Shown piece after piece: positions 13,141 to 26,693 of a stretch of DNA of 36,151 nucleotides (positions are counted from its first letter, which is position 1; every line of letters starts with the position of its first letter). This DNA is from Candidatus Omnitrophota bacterium. Lineage in GTDB: Bacteria > Omnitrophota > Gorgyraeia > Tantalellales > Tantalellaceae. The notes below the pieces were generated by a model that was given only the letters and a program-made list of their open reading frames with translations, was not told where the DNA came from and ran no database searches. Made by a program: the position numbers and the translations under genes. The stretch lies in contig JAJRVD010000102.1 in the NCBI GenBank assembly GCA_024277375.1, positions 1 through 36,151 on the forward strand, given 5' to 3'.

Positions 13141-13167
13141 ATCTATTGCTCTCGTCTCTCTGTCATT

Positions 13168-13278
13168 CAGACTGTGTCATAATGTAGGGGCTTGATTCAT
13201 CAAGCCCGTTATATCGGGTTCGATGAATCGAACCCCTACAATATATTGTATGCGGCCATCCGCAAAACGAATTACGAC
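13168..13278 (+). repeat. TIR-bearing intergenic element, copy R1
   Basis: Starts CAGACTGTGTCATAATGTAG and ends with GCAAAACGAATTACGAC, lacking the last few bases of the right terminus found in R2. Internally it holds two hairpin arms: CTTGATTCATCAAG, and GGTTCGATGAATCGAACC followed by CCTACAATATATTG. The same sequence recurs at 15330, 20444, 21459, 23536 and 25796. No coding potential. The terminal inverted repeats suggest a MITE-like element. Confidence 0.85.
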
Positions 13279-17668: not shown

Positions 17669-19462
17669 TTATAAATAATATTCAATTATTATCTCTTCCT
17701 TCTTCAGGAGAGATAATACCTTTTTAATGGCGGCTCCGGTTGAATCGTCTTTTGATAACCGCGCGTTAACTTTAAACTTATGGAAATTGCTGTCCCCCAC
17801 ATTGATCACAAGTATCTCATTCGGTTTATTTAACAGCTTAAGTTTCTCGACTTCATAATCATACAGACCATACACAGTTGTGATAAATATCTGTCCGGAA
17901 TCGGTAAATATCCTCGCGAGTTCTCCAAGACGTCTGATATGTTCTTCCCTGTCTTTTCCATCAGAATCAATGCCCCGTAAAAAACTGGAAAGCCCCAGAT
18001 AGTACACTTTATACTTGTTCTTGAAAAGGTACTCTTCAGCGGCTTTAGCTATTTCACGAACCTTTTGTTCGGTGCCTTCTTCGCATCCGGTAAAAACAAT
18101 AAATTTTGATTTATGTCCGAATTTCGTCTCTCTTTCATCGGCAGACACAGCGCCCTTCTCCCACAAATACTCTCTTTCTTCTATGTGTTTTTTAAGGATA
18201 GAGTCTTCACTTGTAAGGCTTTCCAGTATTATTCCACCTCCGGCTATTTCATAATTATCAACTATCACGATCCGGCCCATCGTCTCCACATCACTCACTA
18301 AGTCAAACGCTATAGGGCGCGCCGCTTCAAAAACACATTCGGCGACATCGTGCCGGTCAACCTGCTCTTTATTGCTGACCGTGCTTAATTCTGAAGCGTC
18401 TAAAACGTTTATTATATCAACCAGTTTCACTGTAGTTCTCATCGCGGCAAGCTTTAACTTGTATTTTTTGTCTTTGACCAAAGGATCCCTGCCAACCCAG
18501 AATATATTGGCTTTGAATCTGGAACTCACTTTCGGCATCAGGTCCCTCGACTTGACCATAAGTTCTCCGGGCCGTATATATACTTGTGTAGACAGCGTAA
18601 ACCCTATAGCTTCACCGGCTGCAGCCGTCTCCTTCTCAGGCACGTTAAATGCCTCGACCGACTTAACGGTAGACTCTTTATACGAAGGAAGAAATGTTAC
18701 TTTATCTCCACGCTTTATAGATCCGGATTCGACCGTCCCGGCAACTATCCTTCGATCATCGTTCTCTTGGGTAAACTTATAGATATCCTGCACGGGAAAC
18801 CTGAATGGCAAGTTTTCCGCAATTGCCTGTTTTTTAAGAGCGTCCAACTCATCGAGAACCGTGCCGCCTTTATACCAAGGTGTGTTTTTCGATCTTTCCG
18901 CTATATTATCACCATAAAAAGCACTGACAGGAACAAAACTTATCGGCTCCACCTTAAGCTCTCTTAAAAATGCCGTATACTCCTCTTTTATCTTATCGAA
19001 TACACCTTTATCATAATCAACAAGATCGAGCTTGTTAACAAGGACCACTACCTGATCAATACCTAATAACGACACGAGATATCCGTGCCGTTTTGAATTT
19101 TCTCGTATACCTTCCTTGGCGTCGATCACTAGAAAAGCCGCTTCCGCGTGCGCGGCTCCCGTTACCATATTTTTTAAAAATTCTATATGCCCGGGGGCAT
19201 CGATTATAATATAGTCGCGTTTTTTAGTTTTAAAAAAACAACGAGCCGAATCTATAGTGATCCCCTGAGACTGCTCATCTTTTAGCGCGTCTAAAAGAAA
19301 CGCGTATTCAAACGGTTTGGCGTTCTTCGCGCATGTAGCTTTCACCTGTTCCAGTTTGCCCTCAGGCAAAGAATTCGTATCAGCCAGGAGACGCCCTATT
19401 ACAGTGCTCTTACCATGATCCACATGCCCCACAACAACAATATTCATCTGTTCTCTATTCAC
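17669..19462 (-). CDS. cysN: Sulfate adenylyltransferase large subunit (CysN) with a degenerate APS-kinase domain
   Basis: A 597-residue protein. Residues 1-430 are the CysN GTPase, with GHVDHGKST (12-20), DAPGH (88-92) and NKLD (143-146), followed by the beta-barrel domains. GTP hydrolysis drives APS formation from ATP and sulfate by CysD. Residues 448-597 align with APS kinase (CysC) through the pattern [19 protein letters not shown]. However, the P-loop is TGCEEGTE (458-465) instead of GxSGxGKS, and the DGDxxR motif is replaced by LSSFLR. Kinase activity is therefore most unlikely. The domain may be structural or regulatory, which fits an APS-type reductase that needs no PAPS. It follows cysD by 48 bases. 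Confidence 0.9.
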
Positions 19463-19510: not shown

Positions 19511-20395
19511 TTACATATACCCGTCGCGCCGTAACGTCTCCAATCCCCCACTATCATCTTTATCCTGCGCGCGCCCGGACCTCTCGGCGACATTAACAAA
19601 CTTTCCGCTTCGAAGTTCCTCTATGATCTCTTCGATATTTTTCGCGGTCGACTCAACCGGGTCAGTACACGGATAACAGCCTAAAGACCGATACCTTGTC
19701 CCCTCCCCACGATCAAGATACAACGAAGTAACCGGAATGTTTTCCTTGTAGATGTATTCCCATATATTCAGCTCGGTCCAATCCAGAAGCGGATGTATTC
19801 TTACATGAGTACCGGGCGCGAAATCTGTTTTATATTGATTCCAGAATTCAGGAGGCTGATCACCTACATCCCAGTCATTAGCTTTGTCACGCGGCGAGAA
19901 ATATCTCTCCTTCGACCTTGAACCCTCTTCATCCGCGCGCACGCCGACAATGACCCCTGTATACGGCTCTTTGTTCTCGTCTACAACATACTTATCCTTT
20001 TTGTGGTCGTACCTGTATCTTGGCCATTCTCCGGATAAGGTATGTTTAAGCGCCTCACTTTTAAGAAGCTTACAACACGTTAGCCTATCTACATTTCCGT
20101 CAGGAAAAGTTTGTTTATTATTAAGTGCTTCCGGGTTTTCGCCATAGACAAGATTAAGTTTCAATTCTTTCGCGAGATTATCCCTGTAGTCGATCATCTC
20201 GGGTATCTTGTAATGGGTGTCAATGTGTACCAGGGGGAGCGGAACATGCCCCAGAAAGGCTTTACGAGCAAGCCATAACAGAACGGTGCTGTCCTTGCCT
20301 ATGGACCACAACATGGCAAGATTCTTAAATTCCCGATAAGCTTCTCTTAAAATATGCACACTATGCGCTTCAAGTTGCTCTATTTGATTCATCAT
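19511..20395 (-). CDS. cysD: Sulfate adenylyltransferase small subunit
   Basis: A 294-residue CysD, the catalytic subunit that adenylates sulfate to APS in the cytoplasm. Seen in the sequence are [19 protein letters not shown] (the PP-loop of the ATP pyrophosphatase fold), [11 protein letters not shown], the [14 protein letters not shown] segment, and the C-terminal [14 protein letters not shown] and RSGRAQDKD stretches characteristic of this subunit. The length is close to the usual 300. The partner cysN follows. The region upstream (20401-20690) has no gene: it holds repeat copy R3 and a near direct repeat. Confidence 0.93.
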
Positions 20396-20690: not shown

Positions 20691-21431
20691 CTACTTCCTG
20701 CCTCTAATCACTTTTCCATTTTTTATATGCAGTCCGCATTCTTTCTGTTCCGGTGCTTCCCACCACCACCGGCCGGCACGAACGTCATCACTTTCTTTTA
20801 CCGCTCTTGTGCAAGGAGCACAACCTATGCTTCTGTATCCGGCGTCATGCAACTTATTGTAAGGCACGTCGTTGTCTTTAATGTATTTCCATATATTTTT
20901 TTCTGTCCACCCGAAGAGAGGATTTATCTTTACAAGCGAAAACGCTTCGTCCCATTCCAGAACCTCCATATCAGACCGCGTAACTGCTTGCTCTCTGCGC
21001 AGACCTGTTATCCACGCCTTCAAATTACTCAATTTGCGCTTCAAAGGCTCTATCTTACGAACTTTACAACATAGCTTCCGGCTCTCAATACTATCATAAA
21101 AAAGATTCGGCCCGAATTCTGACGTCATTTTTTCCACATCTGCCCGCTCAGGAAACAACATTTCAATATCCATACCATATTTACTTATTGTCCCGGCTAT
21201 CACATCATATGTTTGGCTCGGAAGACGGCCTGTATCAAGAGTAAAGATCTGCATTCTTTCAGACGCGCGAGCTATCATCTCCGTAAGAACCTGATCTTCA
21301 GCGCTTATACTTGAAGCCAAAGCGACATTGTCAGGTCCAAAAAACTCCGCGGCCCAAGCGATAATTTCTTCAGCCGAAAAATCCTTTAGCTTTTCCTGAT
21401 ATTCCGCAATATCCTCTTTCGTTATTTTCAT
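20691..21431 (-). CDS. cysH: Adenylyl-sulfate (APS) reductase, Fe-S type, thioredoxin dependent
   Basis: A 246-residue CysH that reduces the activated sulfate made by CysDN to sulfite. The PP-loop region is SSISAEDQVLTEM, and LDTGRLPSQTYD follows. Four cysteines for a [4Fe-4S] cluster are present: Cys121-Cys122 (RKLCCKVRK) and Cys204/Cys207 (GCAPCTR). The cluster marks the APS-reducing group rather than the cluster-free PAPS reductases of enterobacteria. The catalytic cysteine is Cys232 in KECGLH. Using APS directly means that no APS kinase is required, which agrees with the degenerate kinase domain on CysN. It is flanked by repeats R3 and R4. Confidence 0.92.
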   Translation of the reverse strand: MKITKEDIAEYQEKLKDFSAEEIIAWAAEFFGPDNVALASSISAEDQVLTEMIARASERMQIFTLDTGRLPSQTYDVIAGTISKYGMDIEMLFPERADVEKMTSEFGPNLFYDSIESRKLCCKVRKIEPLKRKLSNLKAWITGLRREQAVTRSDMEVLEWDEAFSLVKINPLFGWTEKNIWKYIKDNDVPYNKLHDAGYRSIGCAPCTRAVKESDDVRAGRWWWEAPEQKECGLHIKNGKVIRGRK

Positions 21432-21608: not shown

Positions 21609-21898
21609 GAAAACGGGAATCCAGCAATGCTATATCTGGTATTCCGGTACATCAACCTTCTCCCTGCCGTACTCGATCTTATTCCACGCCCTTTCATGAA
21701 AATAATACAATATGAATTTGGTTATGGCCTCTACCCCGCCGATAGAGACCGCCAATACGACCTTACCTGTAATAAGCCACGCGATCAAAAAAGTATCTAT
21801 CGTGCCTGTCACACGCCATGAAATCGCTTTTGCTATGCTTCTTTTATGTTTTTCCATGTTTAGCCTCGCACTGTCATTCCCGTGAAAACGGAAATCTA
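21609..21898. repeat. Stop-codon-spanning repeat flanking the DUF2061 gene
   Basis: On the minus strand, TACCAGATATAG followed by CATTGCTGGATTCCCGTTTT forms the end of the DUF2061 gene (21609-21641). On the other side of that gene, TAGATTTCCGTTTTCACGGG and AATGACAG (21871-21898) form the end of the TusA-like gene. TACCAGATATAG also forms the end of the Rrf2 gene (26248-26259). These are parts of one repeat family carrying a TTCCCGTTTTCACGGGAA hairpin. The interval between the two blocks is the DUF2061 gene itself. Confidence 0.55.
21630..21857 (-). CDS. DUF2061 small membrane protein
   Basis: A 75-residue protein beginning MEKHKRSIAKAISWRVTGTI and continuing DTFLIAWLITGK, IGGVEAITKFILYYFHERAWN. 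This is the DUF2061 signature: two membrane helices (about 17-32 and 34-53) after a basic start, with the conserved HERAWN motif. DUF2061 proteins often sit beside, or are fused to, sulfate-activation genes, but no biochemical role is established as far as I know. Here it lies between cysH and the TusA-like gene. Its last codons and stop (Tyr-Gln-Ile-stop) come from a dispersed repeat, so the natural C-terminus may have been replaced. Confidence 0.85.
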   Translation of the reverse strand: MEKHKRSIAKAISWRVTGTIDTFLIAWLITGKVVLAVSIGGVEAITKFILYYFHERAWNKIEYGREKVDVPEYQI

Positions 21899-22129
21899 TT
21901 TCTTTTCAATAACCACCTTAAATGTTCTGTCCAGAGGAACAACTTTAAGCACCTTATGCCCTTCTTCTTTAAGGCTTCTCGGCACATTAAGGATAGCATC
22001 ACCTTCGTCCAGAATAACTTCTAAAAGCTCCCCCGATGCGATCTCTTCCAATGCCACTTTGACCTTAACCAGGTTCAACGGACATACAACACCTTCCAGG
22101 TCTATTGCCTTCTCTATTTTAAACTCCAT
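21896..22129 (-). CDS. TusA-family sulfur carrier
   Basis: A 77-residue TusA-like protein. The active motif is LEGVVCPLNLVKVKVAL, with the persulfide-forming cysteine at 17 in Cys-Pro-x4-Lys context, followed by the usual beta-alpha-beta-beta pattern. Family members carry sulfur as a persulfide between enzymes or help reductive sulfur steps. Its start overlaps the end of the JAMM-sulfite reductase gene by 11 bases, so the two are translated together. That points to a role in handling sulfide or sulfane sulfur next to sulfite reduction or carrier loading. Exact partners are not known. Confidence 0.88.
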   Translation of the reverse strand: MEFKIEKAIDLEGVVCPLNLVKVKVALEEIASGELLEVILDEGDAILNVPRSLKEEGHKVLKVVPLDRTFKVVIEKK

Positions 22130-23498
22130 CTAATATCTCCTTCTTAACTTTCTCCTCACCGACACGATCGATACAATGGCCAAAACGCTCTTTTTTGCGG
22201 CCATGCTTTCTATATAACTCAACAGTTCGATCAATTAACACCATAAGCTCTTTCTCGTCCGCTATCAAAACCTTGAGCTTCGTAGCCAAACGAGGTTTTT
22301 TACCCATAGTACCCCCAACAAAAAGGCTGTACCCCTTCTTGTCTACTACCCAGGTATCCGTGGGGCATGTAGATGTACATATACTGCAGAAAATACATTT
22401 ATCGACGTTAAGCTTATACTCGTCATTCTCTTTATATATCGCGCCGGTGGGACAAACATTCACGCAAAGGTCACAATTTATACATTCTTCTTTCTCCCAT
22501 TTTGGCAATATCCCGCCCATGACACCTATATCGTTCTCCGTTGCTTTCGCGCAATTGTGCGGACACCCCGTAACGGAAAACTTGAACTTATGGGGCGTAT
22601 CTTTTCTGAAATATTCGTCATCCAGCCTTGCGGCGAGTTTTTTTGTATTTATAATTCCCCACCGACAAGTTGTATCACCCGGACATGCCACTACTATGCG
22701 TATCCTCGGACCGCAAGCACCCATTTCAATGTCGGCGCTTTTAAGGTCCGCACGCGCTTGCACCAAGTCCCCGCCTTTAACATTATGAATTTCAACACCC
22801 TGACGAGTAGAAAGATGAACCTCCCCATCGGCGTACTTATCAGAAACTTCAGCTATTTTTTTTAGCTGTGCCGCATTTAAGTCCCCGCCCACAACATGCA
22901 ATCTCATCGCATACAAGCCTTTTTGCTTTTGCTGTATAATGCCAATTTGTTTAAGCGCCGCCGGATCGCTCTCGTCTACCCGTATATTACCGGAATCAAC
23001 CGCAGGAGCTGCCTCTGGCAGCGAACATTTTTCCACTTCCAGCTCCACTTCACTAACCTTACCGGATACGATACTAAACGCTTTGATGGTCTTAGTATTA
23101 TCCACCAGAGAAACTATCAAATAAACTATCTTCGGATCAAAAGCGAGTTTTATATCCTCGTCGGATGGCCTCGCCGGCGAAGCCGGATGGCTGTGATATA
23201 CAGCAACCACTTCCCTGCCTTTAGCACGCGCCGCTTTCACCACCTCAAACTGTTCTTTAGGATCAAAAGAAAAATGCTCTTCGCTTTTATCCGTATTGGT
23301 CATAGGGCACACTTCACTAATCTCTGTAATCCCGAGCGAGGCCGGAGGCTCCTCCCCTGTCATCCCGAGCGAGGCCGGAGGCCGAGCCGAGGGATCTATA
23401 ACGTTCCCCGTCAAATATCCACAAGCTTCTATCGGCGCGTCTTTCTCCGCGTGCGCGAAAAGTCTATCCTTTATATTCTCACTTATCCTTAATTTCAT
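22119..23498 (-). CDS. Fusion: JAMM (HcyD/Mec-like) metalloprotease plus siroheme sulfite reductase with two 4Fe-4S ferredoxin motifs
   Basis: A 459-residue two-enzyme chain. Residues 1-155 are a JAMM domain with all zinc and catalytic residues: Glu24, His102-Ser-His104, Ser112 and Asp115. Such domains (HcyD, Mec+) trim the carrier C-terminus and free the amino acid from it. Residues 175-459 are a small sulfite reductase of the AsrC/Fsr type. HLSTRQGVEIHN is followed by Cys272-x5-Cys278 and Cys312-x3-Cys316 for siroheme-[4Fe-4S], then ferredoxin motifs Cys339/342/345/349 and Cys368/371/374/378. It would reduce sulfite to sulfide in the cytoplasm. Residues 34-58 are encoded by an inserted dispersed repeat, between EACGYLTGN and the next strand. 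TusA follows, hcyF precedes. The joining of the two activities in one frame is clear; both activities are inferred. Confidence 0.9.
   Translation of the reverse strand: MKLRISENIKDRLFAHAEKDAPIEACGYLTGNVIDPSARPPASLGMTGEEPPASLGITEISEVCPMTNTDKSEEHFSFDPKEQFEVVKAARAKGREVVAVYHSHPASPARPSDEDIKLAFDPKIVYLIVSLVDNTKTIKAFSIVSGKVSEVELEVEKCSLPEAAPAVDSGNIRVDESDPAALKQIGIIQQKQKGLYAMRLHVVGGDLNAAQLKKIAEVSDKYADGEVHLSTRQGVEIHNVKGGDLVQARADLKSADIEMGACGPRIRIVVACPGDTTCRWGIINTKKLAARLDDEYFRKDTPHKFKFSVTGCPHNCAKATENDIGVMGGILPKWEKEECINCDLCVNVCPTGAIYKENDEYKLNVDKCIFCSICTSTCPTDTWVVDKKGYSLFVGGTMGKKPRLATKLKVLIADEKELMVLIDRTVELYRKHGRKKERFGHCIDRVGEEKVKKEILDGV
23325..23400. repeat. Dispersed palindromic repeat inserted in frame in a coding region
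   Basis: ATCCCGAGCGAGGCCGGAGG occurs twice (from 23329 and from 23362). The second copy continues CCGAGCCGAGGGATCTATA to 23400, nearly the inverse of the intergenic repeat at 11050-11092. It is translated as Ile-Asp-Pro-Ser-Ala-Arg-Pro-Pro and two Pro-Ala-Ser-Leu-Gly units within the JAMM domain. The same repeat holds a TAG in another frame, which it supplies as the metY stop; here the frame avoids it. Confidence 0.8.
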
Positions 23499-23606: not shown

Positions 23607-24416
23607 CTACATTCTGCTCCGCAAGTCACACATCGCCTGTTCAGCATCTACAAGTTCAGTAACCGTTGGATTATCTCCGCATATCGGACAATTAGGATTT
23701 TTCTTAACCGGCGCGGTTCTGAATGTCATATTAAGAGCGTCAAATACCAGAAGACGGTTCGTCAGAAGCTCTCCCTCTCCTATAAAAAACTTCAACACTT
23801 CCGCCGCTTGTATCGTACCTAACATACCCGCGATTGCGCCCAGAACCCCTGCCTGAGAACATGTCGGAACCGCGTCCTTCGGGGGAGGAGAATTAAAAAC
23901 ACACCTGTAGCATGCCTCCCCTGGAACATACGTCATCGTTTGACCATCAAACCTTAATATACCGCCATGCGAAAATGGTTTTTTGTTAAAAACACACGCG
24001 TCATTAATAAGAAATTTTGCCGGAAAATTGTCAGTACCATCCACAATGAAGTCATAATCTTTAATTATTCCCTCTATATTATTCGCGAATACCAGTTCTT
24101 TGTAAGTTACAACTTTTACATCAGGATTTATGGCCTCCATCTTTTCTTTGGCAGATTCCACCTTAGGCTTGTTTAAGTCAGGCGTAAAATGTATTACCTG
24201 CCTTTGCAAATTCGTCCGGTCCACAACGTCACCGTCAACTATACCGATTGTCCCCACGCCCGCCGCCGCCAAATACAGCGCCGCCGGAGCGCCGAGCCCG
24301 CCAGCCCCGATGATCAGGACCTTGCCGTTCATGATCTTTTCCTGGCCGGTGACACCAACATTCTGTAATATTATGTGTCTCGAATATCTCTCTAATTGTT
24401 CATCAGTGAACTTCAT
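23607..24416 (-). CDS. ThiF/MoeB/HcyF-type E1-like adenylyltransferase
   Basis: A 269-residue E1-like enzyme. It starts with LERYSRHIILQNVG, then the nucleotide-binding VLIIGAGGLGAPAALYLAAAGVG (about 32-54) and DGDVVDRTNLQRQ, the latter providing the acidic and arginine residues for ATP. Zinc cysteines occur in ACYRCVF and NCPICGD, and a further cysteine in PTCSQAGVLG. It adenylates the C-terminal glycine of a ubiquitin-like sulfur carrier, the step before thiocarboxylate formation. No rhodanese domain is attached, so sulfur must come from another source, presumably sulfide from the neighbouring reductase or TusA. The carrier gene and metY lie just upstream. By context it is the HcyF equivalent; a ThiF or MoeB role cannot be excluded, though no thiamine or molybdopterin genes are present. 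Confidence 0.88.
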   Translation of the reverse strand: MKFTDEQLERYSRHIILQNVGVTGQEKIMNGKVLIIGAGGLGAPAALYLAAAGVGTIGIVDGDVVDRTNLQRQVIHFTPDLNKPKVESAKEKMEAINPDVKVVTYKELVFANNIEGIIKDYDFIVDGTDNFPAKFLINDACVFNKKPFSHGGILRFDGQTMTYVPGEACYRCVFNSPPPKDAVPTCSQAGVLGAIAGMLGTIQAAEVLKFFIGEGELLTNRLLVFDALNMTFRTAPVKKNPNCPICGDNPTVTELVDAEQAMCDLRSRM

Positions 24417-24461: not shown

Positions 24462-24502
24462 TGTCCTCCTGAGCGAGTCCGCAGGCCGAGTCGAAGGATC
24501 TA
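24462..24502. repeat. Diverged copy of the CCGAGCGAGG repeat, supplying the metY stop
   Basis: TGTCCTCCTGAGCGAGTCCG continues CAGGCCGAGTCGAAGGATCT to 24501. It is a diverged copy of the repeat at 11050 and 23362. On the minus strand its terminal ATAGATCC gives the TAG stop of metY (24500-24502). Confidence 0.65.
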
Positions 24503-25738
24503 TATCCCCACTAACGCGCTCCTAATGTCATCTATCACATCACCCTCGTCTTCAATCCCTACAGCAAGTCTTAGCATAGTGTCTCTCACACCCATATCTT
24601 TTTTCGTCGCCTCGTCATACTCGCAAAATATTGTCGACTCAGGATGCAGAATAAGCGTCCTATTATCGTTTAAATTAGTCGCTCTTCTCACCAACTCAAG
24701 TTTATTCAAAAACGCGAAACACTCTTCTTTTGACGCCAGATCAAACGTCAGAATACTACTCGGTTTGTTCCCAAACTGTTTTTCAGAGATCTCATGATAC
24801 TTAGAACTTTTTAGTCCCGGATAGTTAACGGCCTTCACTTTAGACGCACTTTCCAAAAATTCAGCTATCACTAGAGCATTCTTACATGAAACGTCAACCC
24901 GCAGCGTAAGCGTCTCAAGCCCCAGGCTTTGTGCCGCGGCATTTTGAGGAGACATACACGCTCCCAGATTTCTGTATACTTCCTGCCGCAACTTACTGAT
25001 CAAAACGAACGGTCCGAGTTTTTTAGCGTCAGGGGCAAGTTTACTGTTCTTACTCCAATCGTATGACCCGTTATCTATCACAAGTCCTCCAACTGTCGTT
25101 GCGCCACCTGATATATACTTGGTACTGGAAAGCACCTCAACATCCACACCAAATGCCTTTGAATCGAATATATATGGAGGTGTAAGCGTAGTATCAGCCA
25201 CAACCAAAACTCCCTTGGCTTTAGCCACATCCGCTAAAGCTTTAATATCAGCAACTTCAAGCTGTGGATTAGTAATAGTTTCCAGGAATAAGATCCTGGT
25301 TTTATCATTTATTAGACTACTCACATTACCTACATCCGTCATATCCGCATAGCGTGTCTCAAGACCCCAATCCTTGAATGTCCTTTCAAACAAAGAATAC
25401 GTGTTCCCAAACAAATGCTTACTCGTAACAATATTGTCTCCTGCCTGGCATACAGCTAAAATAACATTTGAGATCGCCGCCATCCCGCTCGATAACGCTA
25501 TAACCCCGACGGCATCTGTAACCGCCCTTATTTTCTGCTCAAAATGTTCAACAGTAGGATTAGATATACGCGAATACATATGTGCGGGCTTTTTGCCCTG
25601 AAACGCGAGCTCGATATCCTCCGCTGACTCATATTCAAATGCTACGTTATTATAGGTAGGCATATGAAGTGACCCATGTGGATCTTTCTTCAAAAAACCC
25701 CTATGCAATATCTTCGTCGTAAAACTTAATTTCTTCAT
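24500..25738 (-). CDS. metY: O-acetyl/O-succinylhomoserine sulfhydrylase (MetY-like) PLP enzyme
   Basis: A 412-residue member of the Cys/Met metabolism PLP family. Features seen are FTTKILHRGF, MYSRISNPTVEHFEQKI, ALSSGMAAISNVI, ETITNPQLEVADI, ADTTLTPPYIF and the lysine-bearing SSTKYISGGATTVGG. It ends with RLAVGIEDEGDVIDDI. These enzymes replace the acyl group of an activated homoserine by a sulfur nucleophile. Next to a ThiS-like carrier, an E1 and a JAMM protease, the sulfur donor is most likely the carrier thiocarboxylate, as shown for MetY of Wolinella succinogenes. Cystathionine gamma-synthase or lyase activity cannot be excluded from motifs alone. The stop codon lies in a dispersed repeat. 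Confidence 0.88.
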   Translation of the reverse strand: MKKLSFTTKILHRGFLKKDPHGSLHMPTYNNVAFEYESAEDIELAFQGKKPAHMYSRISNPTVEHFEQKIRAVTDAVGVIALSSGMAAISNVILAVCQAGDNIVTSKHLFGNTYSLFERTFKDWGLETRYADMTDVGNVSSLINDKTRILFLETITNPQLEVADIKALADVAKAKGVLVVADTTLTPPYIFDSKAFGVDVEVLSSTKYISGGATTVGGLVIDNGSYDWSKNSKLAPDAKKLGPFVLISKLRQEVYRNLGACMSPQNAAAQSLGLETLTLRVDVSCKNALVIAEFLESASKVKAVNYPGLKSSKYHEISEKQFGNKPSSILTFDLASKEECFAFLNKLELVRRATNLNDNRTLILHPESTIFCEYDEATKKDMGVRDTMLRLAVGIEDEGDVIDDIRSALVGI

Positions 25739-25795
25739 ACTAATCCCCTCTTAAATATCTTTCAGTCGACTTCAGCATCCCCAAGACTCGTCATT

Positions 25796-25914
25796 CAGAC
25801 TGTGTCATAATGTAGGGGCTTGATTTATCAAGCCCGTTATATCGGGTTCGATGAATCGAACCCCTACAATATATTACATGCGACCATCCGCAAAACGACT
25901 TACGACACAGCCTG
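25796..25914 (+). repeat. TIR-bearing intergenic element, copy R6
   Basis: A 119-bp copy from CAGACTGTGTCATAATGTAG to TTACGACACAGCCTG, with both inner hairpin arms present. At its right edge a second repeat, GATTGCGAGAAGCGAAGCGA and onward (25914-25946), runs to the stop codon of the carrier gene. The gap between metY and the carrier gene is thus almost entirely repeat sequence. Confidence 0.87.
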
Positions 25915-25946
25915 ATTGCGAGAAGCGAAGCGACGAAGCAACCTCT

Positions 25947-26156
25947 TTATTTTCCTCCGCCCATGAAATACAGAAAATCTATCTCATCACCATCATTTAT
26001 CTGAGTCCGAGCAAACTCTTCTCTTTTGGCAAACTCACCATTAAGTTGAACAGAAACCATGTCCGGCATATCAACCTTGTTTATCTCAAGTAGTTCTGTC
26101 ACTGTTAATTTTTCCTGCTCTAAAACTTGTTCCTTCCCATTAACTACGATCTTCAC
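25947..26156 (-). CDS. ThiS/HcyS-like ubiquitin-fold sulfur carrier with C-terminal Gly-Gly-Gly-Lys
   Basis: A 69-residue carrier starting at GTG (26156): MKIVVNGKEQVLEQ. AAAGGGGG sits seven bases upstream, so the longer frame from 26201 is rejected. LTVTELLEI, VSVQLNGEFAKREEF and INDGDEIDFLYFMGGGK are the usual ThiS-like blocks. ThiS and MoaD end in Gly-Gly. Here a lysine follows Gly-Gly-Gly, so one or two residues must be removed before the glycine can be adenylated. In Wolinella HcyS an extra C-terminal alanine is removed by the JAMM protease HcyD. A JAMM domain, an E1 and MetY lie just downstream. That makes this the likely HcyS equivalent, donating thiocarboxylate sulfur for homocysteine synthesis. 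Confidence 0.88.
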   Translation of the reverse strand: MKIVVNGKEQVLEQEKLTVTELLEINKVDMPDMVSVQLNGEFAKREEFARTQINDGDEIDFLYFMGGGK

Positions 26157-26247: not shown

Positions 26248-26670
26248 CTATATCTGGTACATTATTGTGTCTTGAGCACTTCTAGTTCTCATTACAATAT
26301 CATCAAACATAACTTTGTCAAGCACATCCGCCATGGCATGCTCAACATCCTTCCACACAGCTGAAAACCCCGTGCCGTTCTTCTCAGCCGAGGCGGCAAG
26401 CGGCAAAAGCGGTCCCGATATCTCACGAACCAACTCTCCCAGGCTTATCTCTCCAGGATCCCTTGCCAATACATATCCACCATTCTTACCCCTTATACTC
26501 TTTGCGATCCCCATACGTTTAAGCTGCAAGAGTATCTGCGGCAGATATTTAAGTGGTATTCCATGTTTTTCCGATATGATCTGCATCTGCAACGGTTTCT
26601 TGCCTGGCCAATGTAAAGCCAACGCCAAAACCGCCTTACACGCATAATCACATCTTGCCGATATTCTCAT
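26248..26670 (-). CDS. Rrf2-family transcriptional regulator
   Basis: A 140-residue winged-helix regulator beginning MRISARCDYACKAVLALALH at the ATG at 26670, which has GGAG five bases upstream. The GTG at 26676 is less likely. The DNA-binding region includes ISEKHGIPLKYLPQILLQLKRMG and the wing SIRGKNGGYVLARDP. The three-cysteine cluster motif of IscR is absent, so it is closer to CymR/Rrf2 types, which sense sulfur status, CymR doing so with CysK. It stands first in the leftward sulfur gene run. Its own promoter holds a palindrome over the -10 box, which suggests autoregulation and control of the carrier and downstream genes. Its end (Tyr-Gln-Ile-stop) lies in a dispersed repeat. Confidence 0.85.
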   Translation of the reverse strand: MRISARCDYACKAVLALALHWPGKKPLQMQIISEKHGIPLKYLPQILLQLKRMGIAKSIRGKNGGYVLARDPGEISLGELVREISGPLLPLAASAEKNGTGFSAVWKDVEHAMADVLDKVMFDDIVMRTRSAQDTIMYQI

Positions 26671-26693
26671 CCCCACTCCATTTAAATTTAACT

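What the first reader, a model, noticed from the sequence alone, without database searches (positions are those of the whole stretch)
25947..26156. ThiS-like carrier ending in Gly-Gly-Gly-Lys, requiring C-terminal trimming
The last codons read Met-Gly-Gly-Gly-Lys-stop. ThiS and MoaD end in Gly-Gly and need no processing. Wolinella HcyS has a terminal Ala that is removed by a JAMM protease. A lysine cap would be a different end, and the extra glycine makes the cut site ambiguous (after the second or third Gly). A JAMM domain capable of the cut is encoded in the same cluster.
Basis: partly seen in the sequence, partly recalled or inferred. Interest (0 to 1): 0.75.

Follow-up and report, generated by a model that had tools for sequence, protein, structure and literature searches.

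The report
Capped sulfur-carrier protein, ordinary lysine cap
This is a small ubiquitin-like protein that carries sulfur for making homocysteine; the extra lysine at its end is one of dozens of interchangeable caps that a neighbouring protease most likely clips off, so the lysine is ordinary, although the near-universal presence of some cap is worth testing.

Summary
Window 25947-26156 (minus strand) encodes a 69-aa ThiS-fold carrier ending Met-Gly-Gly-Gly-Lys-stop. It lies in a sulfate-assimilation/homocysteine cluster with MetY, an E1-like enzyme, a JAMM protease fused to a sulfite reductase, a TusA-like protein and CysH/D/N, in an Omnitrophota genome. Trimming is well supported; "a different end" is not. 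The same GGGK end is native in Geobacter metallireducens (PDB 2K5P/3CWI) and occurs in Elusimicrobia and Desantisbacteria. Homologues carry 66 different tails in 80 named loci, or run straight into MetY. Thiamine carriers, including the paralogue in this genome, stop at plain GGG. The cut site is not very ambiguous: the first Gly can be Ala, Gly2-Gly3 are invariant, and ThiS proteins end exactly at Gly3, so the cut is most likely after Gly3, releasing Lys alone. The operon type was described in 2006, and capped carriers with JAMM partners are known (HcyS, QbsE, PtmS2/3). What may be new: the cap is free in sequence but kept in presence (stop directly after Gly3 in 2/80 loci, against about 30% per position just downstream), and carriers can be precursors fused to their acceptor enzymes. 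New member of a known kind.

The parts
25947..26156 (-). ThiS-fold sulfur carrier, 69 aa, HcyS-type, ending MGGGK
   Evidence: model pLDDT 91, best PDB match 3cwi TM 0.90
25950..25952 (-). Lys cap codon (AAA) after Gly3; predicted to be removed
   Evidence: cap position variable in homologues
24500..25738 (-). MetY, O-acetylhomoserine sulfhydrylase-like PLP enzyme (predicted acceptor enzyme; fused to the carrier in 5 related genomes)
23607..24416 (-). E1-like adenylating enzyme (ThiF/MoeB family, no rhodanese domain; HcyF-type)
23019..23498 (-). JAMM/Prok-JAB metalloprotease domain (HcyD-type), motif residues E24, H102, H104, S112, D115; carries a repeat-derived in-frame insertion at about residues 35-60
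22119..23003 (-). Siroheme sulfite reductase with a 2x[4Fe-4S] ferredoxin insert, same ORF as the JAMM domain
21896..22129 (-). TusA/SirA-like sulfurtransferase
21630..21857 (-). DUF2061 membrane protein, recurrent in these clusters
20691..21431 (-). CysH, APS/PAPS reductase
19511..20395 (-). CysD, ATP sulfurylase small subunit
17669..19462 (-). CysN, ATP sulfurylase large subunit with an APS-kinase-like C-terminal part
26248..26676 (-). Rrf2-family regulator (CymR-like) upstream of the carrier
25788..25946 (.). Dispersed repeat filling most of the carrier-metY gap; about 40 copies in the genome; abuts the carrier stop codon

Best explanation
The ORF is the sulfur carrier of a protein-thiocarboxylate homocysteine pathway of the Wolinella HcyS type. 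It is made as a capped precursor. The JAMM domain of the neighbouring JAMM-sulfite reductase protein cuts after the third glycine and releases the single lysine. The E1-like enzyme then adenylates the free Gly-Gly end, sulfide from sulfite reduction (perhaps via the TusA-like protein) turns it into a thiocarboxylate, MetY transfers it to O-acetylhomoserine, and the same JAMM releases homocysteine from the carrier. Because that JAMM must cut Gly-Gly from whatever follows in order to release product, almost any cap is tolerated, which explains why caps drift in sequence. Shown here by sequence: fold, cluster, intact JAMM motif, cap variability, cap/JAMM co-occurrence. Inferred: cleavage itself, its site, and each chemical step.
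For: Cluster content matches row 4e of Iyer et al. [quoted passage not shown] includes Wolinella and Geobacter metallireducens). MetY-cluster carriers in Omnitrophota are capped or fused in 21/21 loci, CysK-cluster carriers in 39/40, thiamine (ThiG-adjacent) carriers in 0/15. Genomes with capped versus only uncapped carriers that hold a JAMM gene: 53/57 versus 1/14, Fisher p=5e-10, TopA-linked carriers excluded. Named genomes from many phyla: 78/80 capped, 66 distinct tails, JAMM within 6 kb in 62/80. Replicated in a second phylum: FLYFMGGG-type carriers capped 4/4, ThiS-type uncapped 25/25. Cut site: Gly2-Gly3 invariant, Gly1 sometimes Ala or Ser; the paralogue in this genome ends at Gly3. 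A MetX-like homoserine acetyltransferase is in the genome. Capped carriers needing a protease are an established idea (PMC6006322).
Against: No biochemistry was done. JAMM co-occurs with the pathway, and its product-releasing role alone would give the same correlation even if the cap were never removed separately. Two of 80 named homologues, and G041 and G202 among CysK-type carriers, end in plain GGG, so a cap is not strictly required. The JAMM domain here carries a repeat-derived insertion not seen in the other JAMM rows examined, so its activity is not certain. The JAMM-sulfite reductase model was of low confidence.
Confidence: 0.83

Rival explanations
1. The carrier is an ordinary thiamine ThiS and the lysine is a harmless extra residue or stop-codon accident.
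For: NCBIfam scores it above the ThiS equivalog cut-off (54.6 against 37.45 bits), and the Geobacter relative is labelled ThiS in the PDB.
Against: The genome has a separate ThiS ending in plain GGG next to ThiG (G000:C36, L126). The window carrier sits with MetY, E1, JAMM and sulfite reductase; ThiG-linked carriers are uncapped 15/15.
Confidence: 0.04
2. JAMM cuts after Gly2, releasing Gly-Lys, so the mature end is Met-Gly-Gly.
For: QbsE-type caps are dipeptides (own knowledge), and the tripeptide Gly-Gly-Gly is nearly invariant.
Against: Gly1 is replaced by Ala in L059 (MAGG) and by Ser or Ala in uncapped carriers L021 and L249, whereas Gly2-Gly3 are invariant; uncapped ThiS paralogues end exactly at Gly3.
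Confidence: 0.08
3. It is a SAMP- or ubiquitin-like protein modifier, with the JAMM acting as a deconjugase on target lysines.
For: E1-like enzyme and JAMM are both present; the E1 has a strong partial score to the SAMP-activating E1 model.
Against: The desampylase and SAMP-E1 models are below their cut-offs (73 against 130 bits; 332 against 450 bits). No E2 appears among the cluster proteins tested, and the carrier is fused to or beside MetY or CysK, pointing to sulfur chemistry.
Confidence: 0.05

Closest known systems
HcyS/HcyD/HcyF/MetY/Sir pathway of Wolinella succinogenes (Krishnamoorthy and Begley 2011; known to me, paper not held)
   Same: Same gene set: capped ThiS-fold carrier, JAMM, E1-like enzyme, MetY, sulfite reductase. 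A Helicobacteraceae relative (L201) ends GGG-Ala in the same kind of cluster.
   Different: Cap is Lys instead of Ala; JAMM and sulfite reductase are one polypeptide here.
Geobacter metallireducens 'ThiS' GmR137, PDB 2K5P/3CWI
   Same: About half the residues identical, same fold (TM 0.90), same native end MGGGK.
   Different: Only a structure is available; labelled as thiamine protein; no function tested in anything I found.
Iyer et al. 2006 operon class 4e (PMC1779556)
   Same: ThiS/MoaD-like, JAB, E1 without rhodanese, SirA, sulfate-assimilation enzymes and O-acetylhomoserine sulfhydrylase.
   Different: Passages read do not discuss the cap or carrier-MetY fusions.
PtmS2/PtmS3 with PtmS1 (PMC6006322) and QbsE/QbsD
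   Same: Carriers with residues after Gly-Gly (MV or C) that need a JAMM protease.
   Different: Serve thiocarboxylic natural products, not homocysteine.
CysO/Mec+/CysM of actinobacteria
   Same: JAMM-linked carrier delivering sulfur to a PLP enzyme (own knowledge).
   Different: Acceptor enzyme is cysteine synthase; window cluster uses MetY.

Membership tests
HcyS-type capped sulfur carrier | ThiS/MoaD beta-grasp fold | tested here: met
   Pfam ThiS 1.1e-11; model pLDDT 91, TM 0.90 to 3cwi
HcyS-type capped sulfur carrier | Residue(s) after the C-terminal glycines | tested here: met
   GGG-Lys-stop
HcyS-type capped sulfur carrier | JAMM protease with intact motif in the same cluster | tested here: met
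   window 22119-23498, E24/H102/H104/S112/D115
HcyS-type capped sulfur carrier | E1-like enzyme, MetY and sulfite reductase in the cluster | tested here: met
HcyS-type capped sulfur carrier | Cap removed by JAMM, carrier thiocarboxylated, homocysteine formed | not testable with these tools
   needs biochemistry
ThiS (thiamine) | Ends in exposed glycines without cap | tested here: not met
ThiS (thiamine) | Next to ThiG or thiamine genes | tested here: not met
   ThiG-linked ThiS is elsewhere, G000:C36
ThiS (thiamine) | Scores over TIGR01683 cut-off | tested here: met
   54.6 bits against 37.45; shows the model does not separate the two groups
SAMP/desampylase conjugation system | JAMM scores as desampylase NF041370, E1 as NF047750 | tested here: not met
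   73.2 against 130 and 332.1 against 450 bits

The most novel reading that the evidence does not exclude
The cap is a selected latch whose sequence does not matter: a carrier of this pathway must be born blocked so that the cell's other E1 enzymes (ThiF, MoeB) cannot charge it until its own JAMM opens it. The same logic allows carriers to be made as in-frame precursors fused to their acceptor enzymes (MetY, CysK) and even to DNA topoisomerase I, cut like ubiquitin precursors.
Probability: 0.3. Interest if true: 0.55.

Novelty: new member of a known kind. Interest (0 to 1): 0.33.

Why it matters
The comparison shows that the C-terminus of this small protein tells homocysteine or cysteine carriers from thiamine ThiS, which family models and PDB titles currently merge. 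It gives a ready set of naturally varied JAMM substrates (tails of 1 to 42 residues, and whole enzymes). It also raises a testable question: why a cap of any sequence is almost always kept.

Tried and rejected
Sequencing error at the stop: rejected, homologues end at the same place with other caps. Cap made by the inserted repeat: the repeat begins right after the stop and lysine caps recur elsewhere, so it is not needed. Cap as a pure by-product of overlap with metY: in 9 of 16 unfused Omnitrophota loci the carrier end overlaps the metY start (my reading), but 7, including the window, do not, so it is at most a contributing cause. Random stop placement: the stop rate directly after Gly3 is 2/80 against 0.22-0.39 at the next three positions (still p about 1e-7 on distinct tails), not corrected for relatedness. 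AlphaFold model of the JAMM-sulfite reductase: pLDDT 50, not used. Laying the whole genome in the Python box was not available. The Wolinella paper is not held.

Full report
The sequence. Window 25947-26156, minus strand, encodes a 69-residue protein that starts at GTG and ends Met-Gly-Gly-Gly-Lys-stop. It belongs to the ThiS family, folds as a beta-grasp with a low-confidence, probably flexible end and is closest among solved structures to 3CWI. The genome is a 2.07 Mb, 95.7% complete assembly. Named records that match genomes of its phylum sample place it in Candidatus Omnitrophota (contigs such as G162:C5 = DOGZ01000022.1, matched by length and position, an inference).

The cluster. On the same strand follow MetY, an E1-like enzyme, a JAMM domain fused to a siroheme sulfite reductase, a TusA-like protein, a DUF2061 protein, CysH, CysD and CysN; an Rrf2 regulator lies upstream. 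This is operon class 4e of Iyer et al. 2006 (PMC1779556), whose members include Wolinella and Geobacter metallireducens. From established knowledge (Krishnamoorthy and Begley 2011; citation seen, text not held), in Wolinella the carrier HcyS loses a terminal alanine to the JAMM HcyD, is adenylated by HcyF, thiocarboxylated with sulfide from Sir, used by MetY, and homocysteine is released by HcyD.

The caps. I read the carrier C-termini of 105 Omnitrophota loci with their neighbours. All 21 MetY-cluster carriers have something after Gly3: K, K, R, RR, RRSA, NN, V, VIFAF, AKRDI, SLNGSV, AHIFSL, GIHGLHNS, tails of 11-25 residues, or, in five genomes of one genus, MetY itself in frame. CysK-cluster carriers are capped or fused to CysK in 39 of 40. 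ThiG-adjacent carriers are uncapped in 15 of 15, among them the second carrier of the window's own genome. Of 80 loci from named genomes across many phyla, 78 are capped, with 66 different tails; lysine alone occurs in L149 (Elusimicrobia), L153 (Desantisbacteria) and L178. In a second phylum sample (148 genomes, phylum of a Desulfobacterales genome) the FLYFMGGG carriers are capped 4 of 4 and the ThiS-like ones uncapped 25 of 25. Geobacter metallireducens GmR137 has 70 native residues, the last being the lysine of MGGGK. So the lysine cap is neither unique nor new as a sequence.

The cut site. In 19 MetY-type carriers Gly2 and Gly3 are invariant while Gly1 is Ala in L059; uncapped carriers with Ser or Ala at Gly1 also exist (L021; L249). 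Uncapped ThiS proteins end exactly at Gly3. A cut after Gly3, releasing lysine alone, is the most likely reading.

The protease. The JAMM domain keeps E24, H102, H104, S112 and D115; these columns are conserved in 99 of 99 JAMM sequences. It has an in-frame insertion at about residues 35-60 that contains a short dispersed repeat and is absent from the other rows examined. JAMM genes over 45 bits (PF14464) occur in 53 of 57 genomes with capped carriers and in 1 of 14 genomes with only uncapped ones (TopA-linked carriers left out). This is co-occurrence, and the pathway itself is a confounder.

Presence without identity. In the 80 named loci a stop falls directly after Gly3 in 2, whereas among those that continue it falls after one, two or three cap residues at rates of 0.22, 0.39 and 0.32. 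Using each distinct tail once gives the same contrast. Thiamine carriers stop right after Gly3 without trouble, so there is no general bar to Gly-stop. The count is not corrected for relatedness. The simplest reading is that some cap is favoured while its sequence is free. Overlap of the carrier's end with the metY start codon (9 of 16 unfused Omnitrophota loci, my reading) may be one cause; keeping the carrier blocked until its own protease acts may be another.

The gap to metY. The 208 bases between carrier and metY are mostly a dispersed repeat with about 40 copies in the genome, which abuts the stop codon.

Verdict. Observation confirmed; trimming likely; lysine ordinary; new member of a known kind, with a modest open question about why a cap is kept.

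Noticed in passing
L016, L022, L024, L029, L088, L103, L109, L114, L117 and 18 further Omnitrophota loci: A ThiS-like carrier sits directly upstream of DNA topoisomerase I, or is fused in frame to its N-terminus (9 loci); 22 of 27 have a cap or fusion after Gly-Gly-Gly. I found no paper on it.
   Followed up: partly
L062, L066, L068, L069, L070: Carrier fused in frame to MetY, with E1 and JAMM genes following: looks like a ubiquitin-type precursor.
   Followed up: partly
L006, L008-L011, L013, L049, L052, L134 and others (23 loci): Carrier fused in frame to cysteine synthase, with a JAMM gene in most of these genomes.
   Followed up: partly
window 22119-23498; L155, L179, L193: JAMM domain and sulfite reductase form one polypeptide; separate genes in most relatives.
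   Followed up: partly
window about 23319-23398: In-frame insertion inside the JAMM coding region containing a short dispersed repeat with over 20 copies in the genome.
   Followed up: yes
window 25788-25946 and 13162-13278: Members of a dispersed repeat family of about 150 bases, about 40 copies in the genome.
   Followed up: partly
PDB 2K5P/3CWI; NCBIfam TIGR01683: Homocysteine-type capped carriers are labelled thiamine ThiS in the PDB and by the NCBIfam equivalog model.
   Followed up: yes
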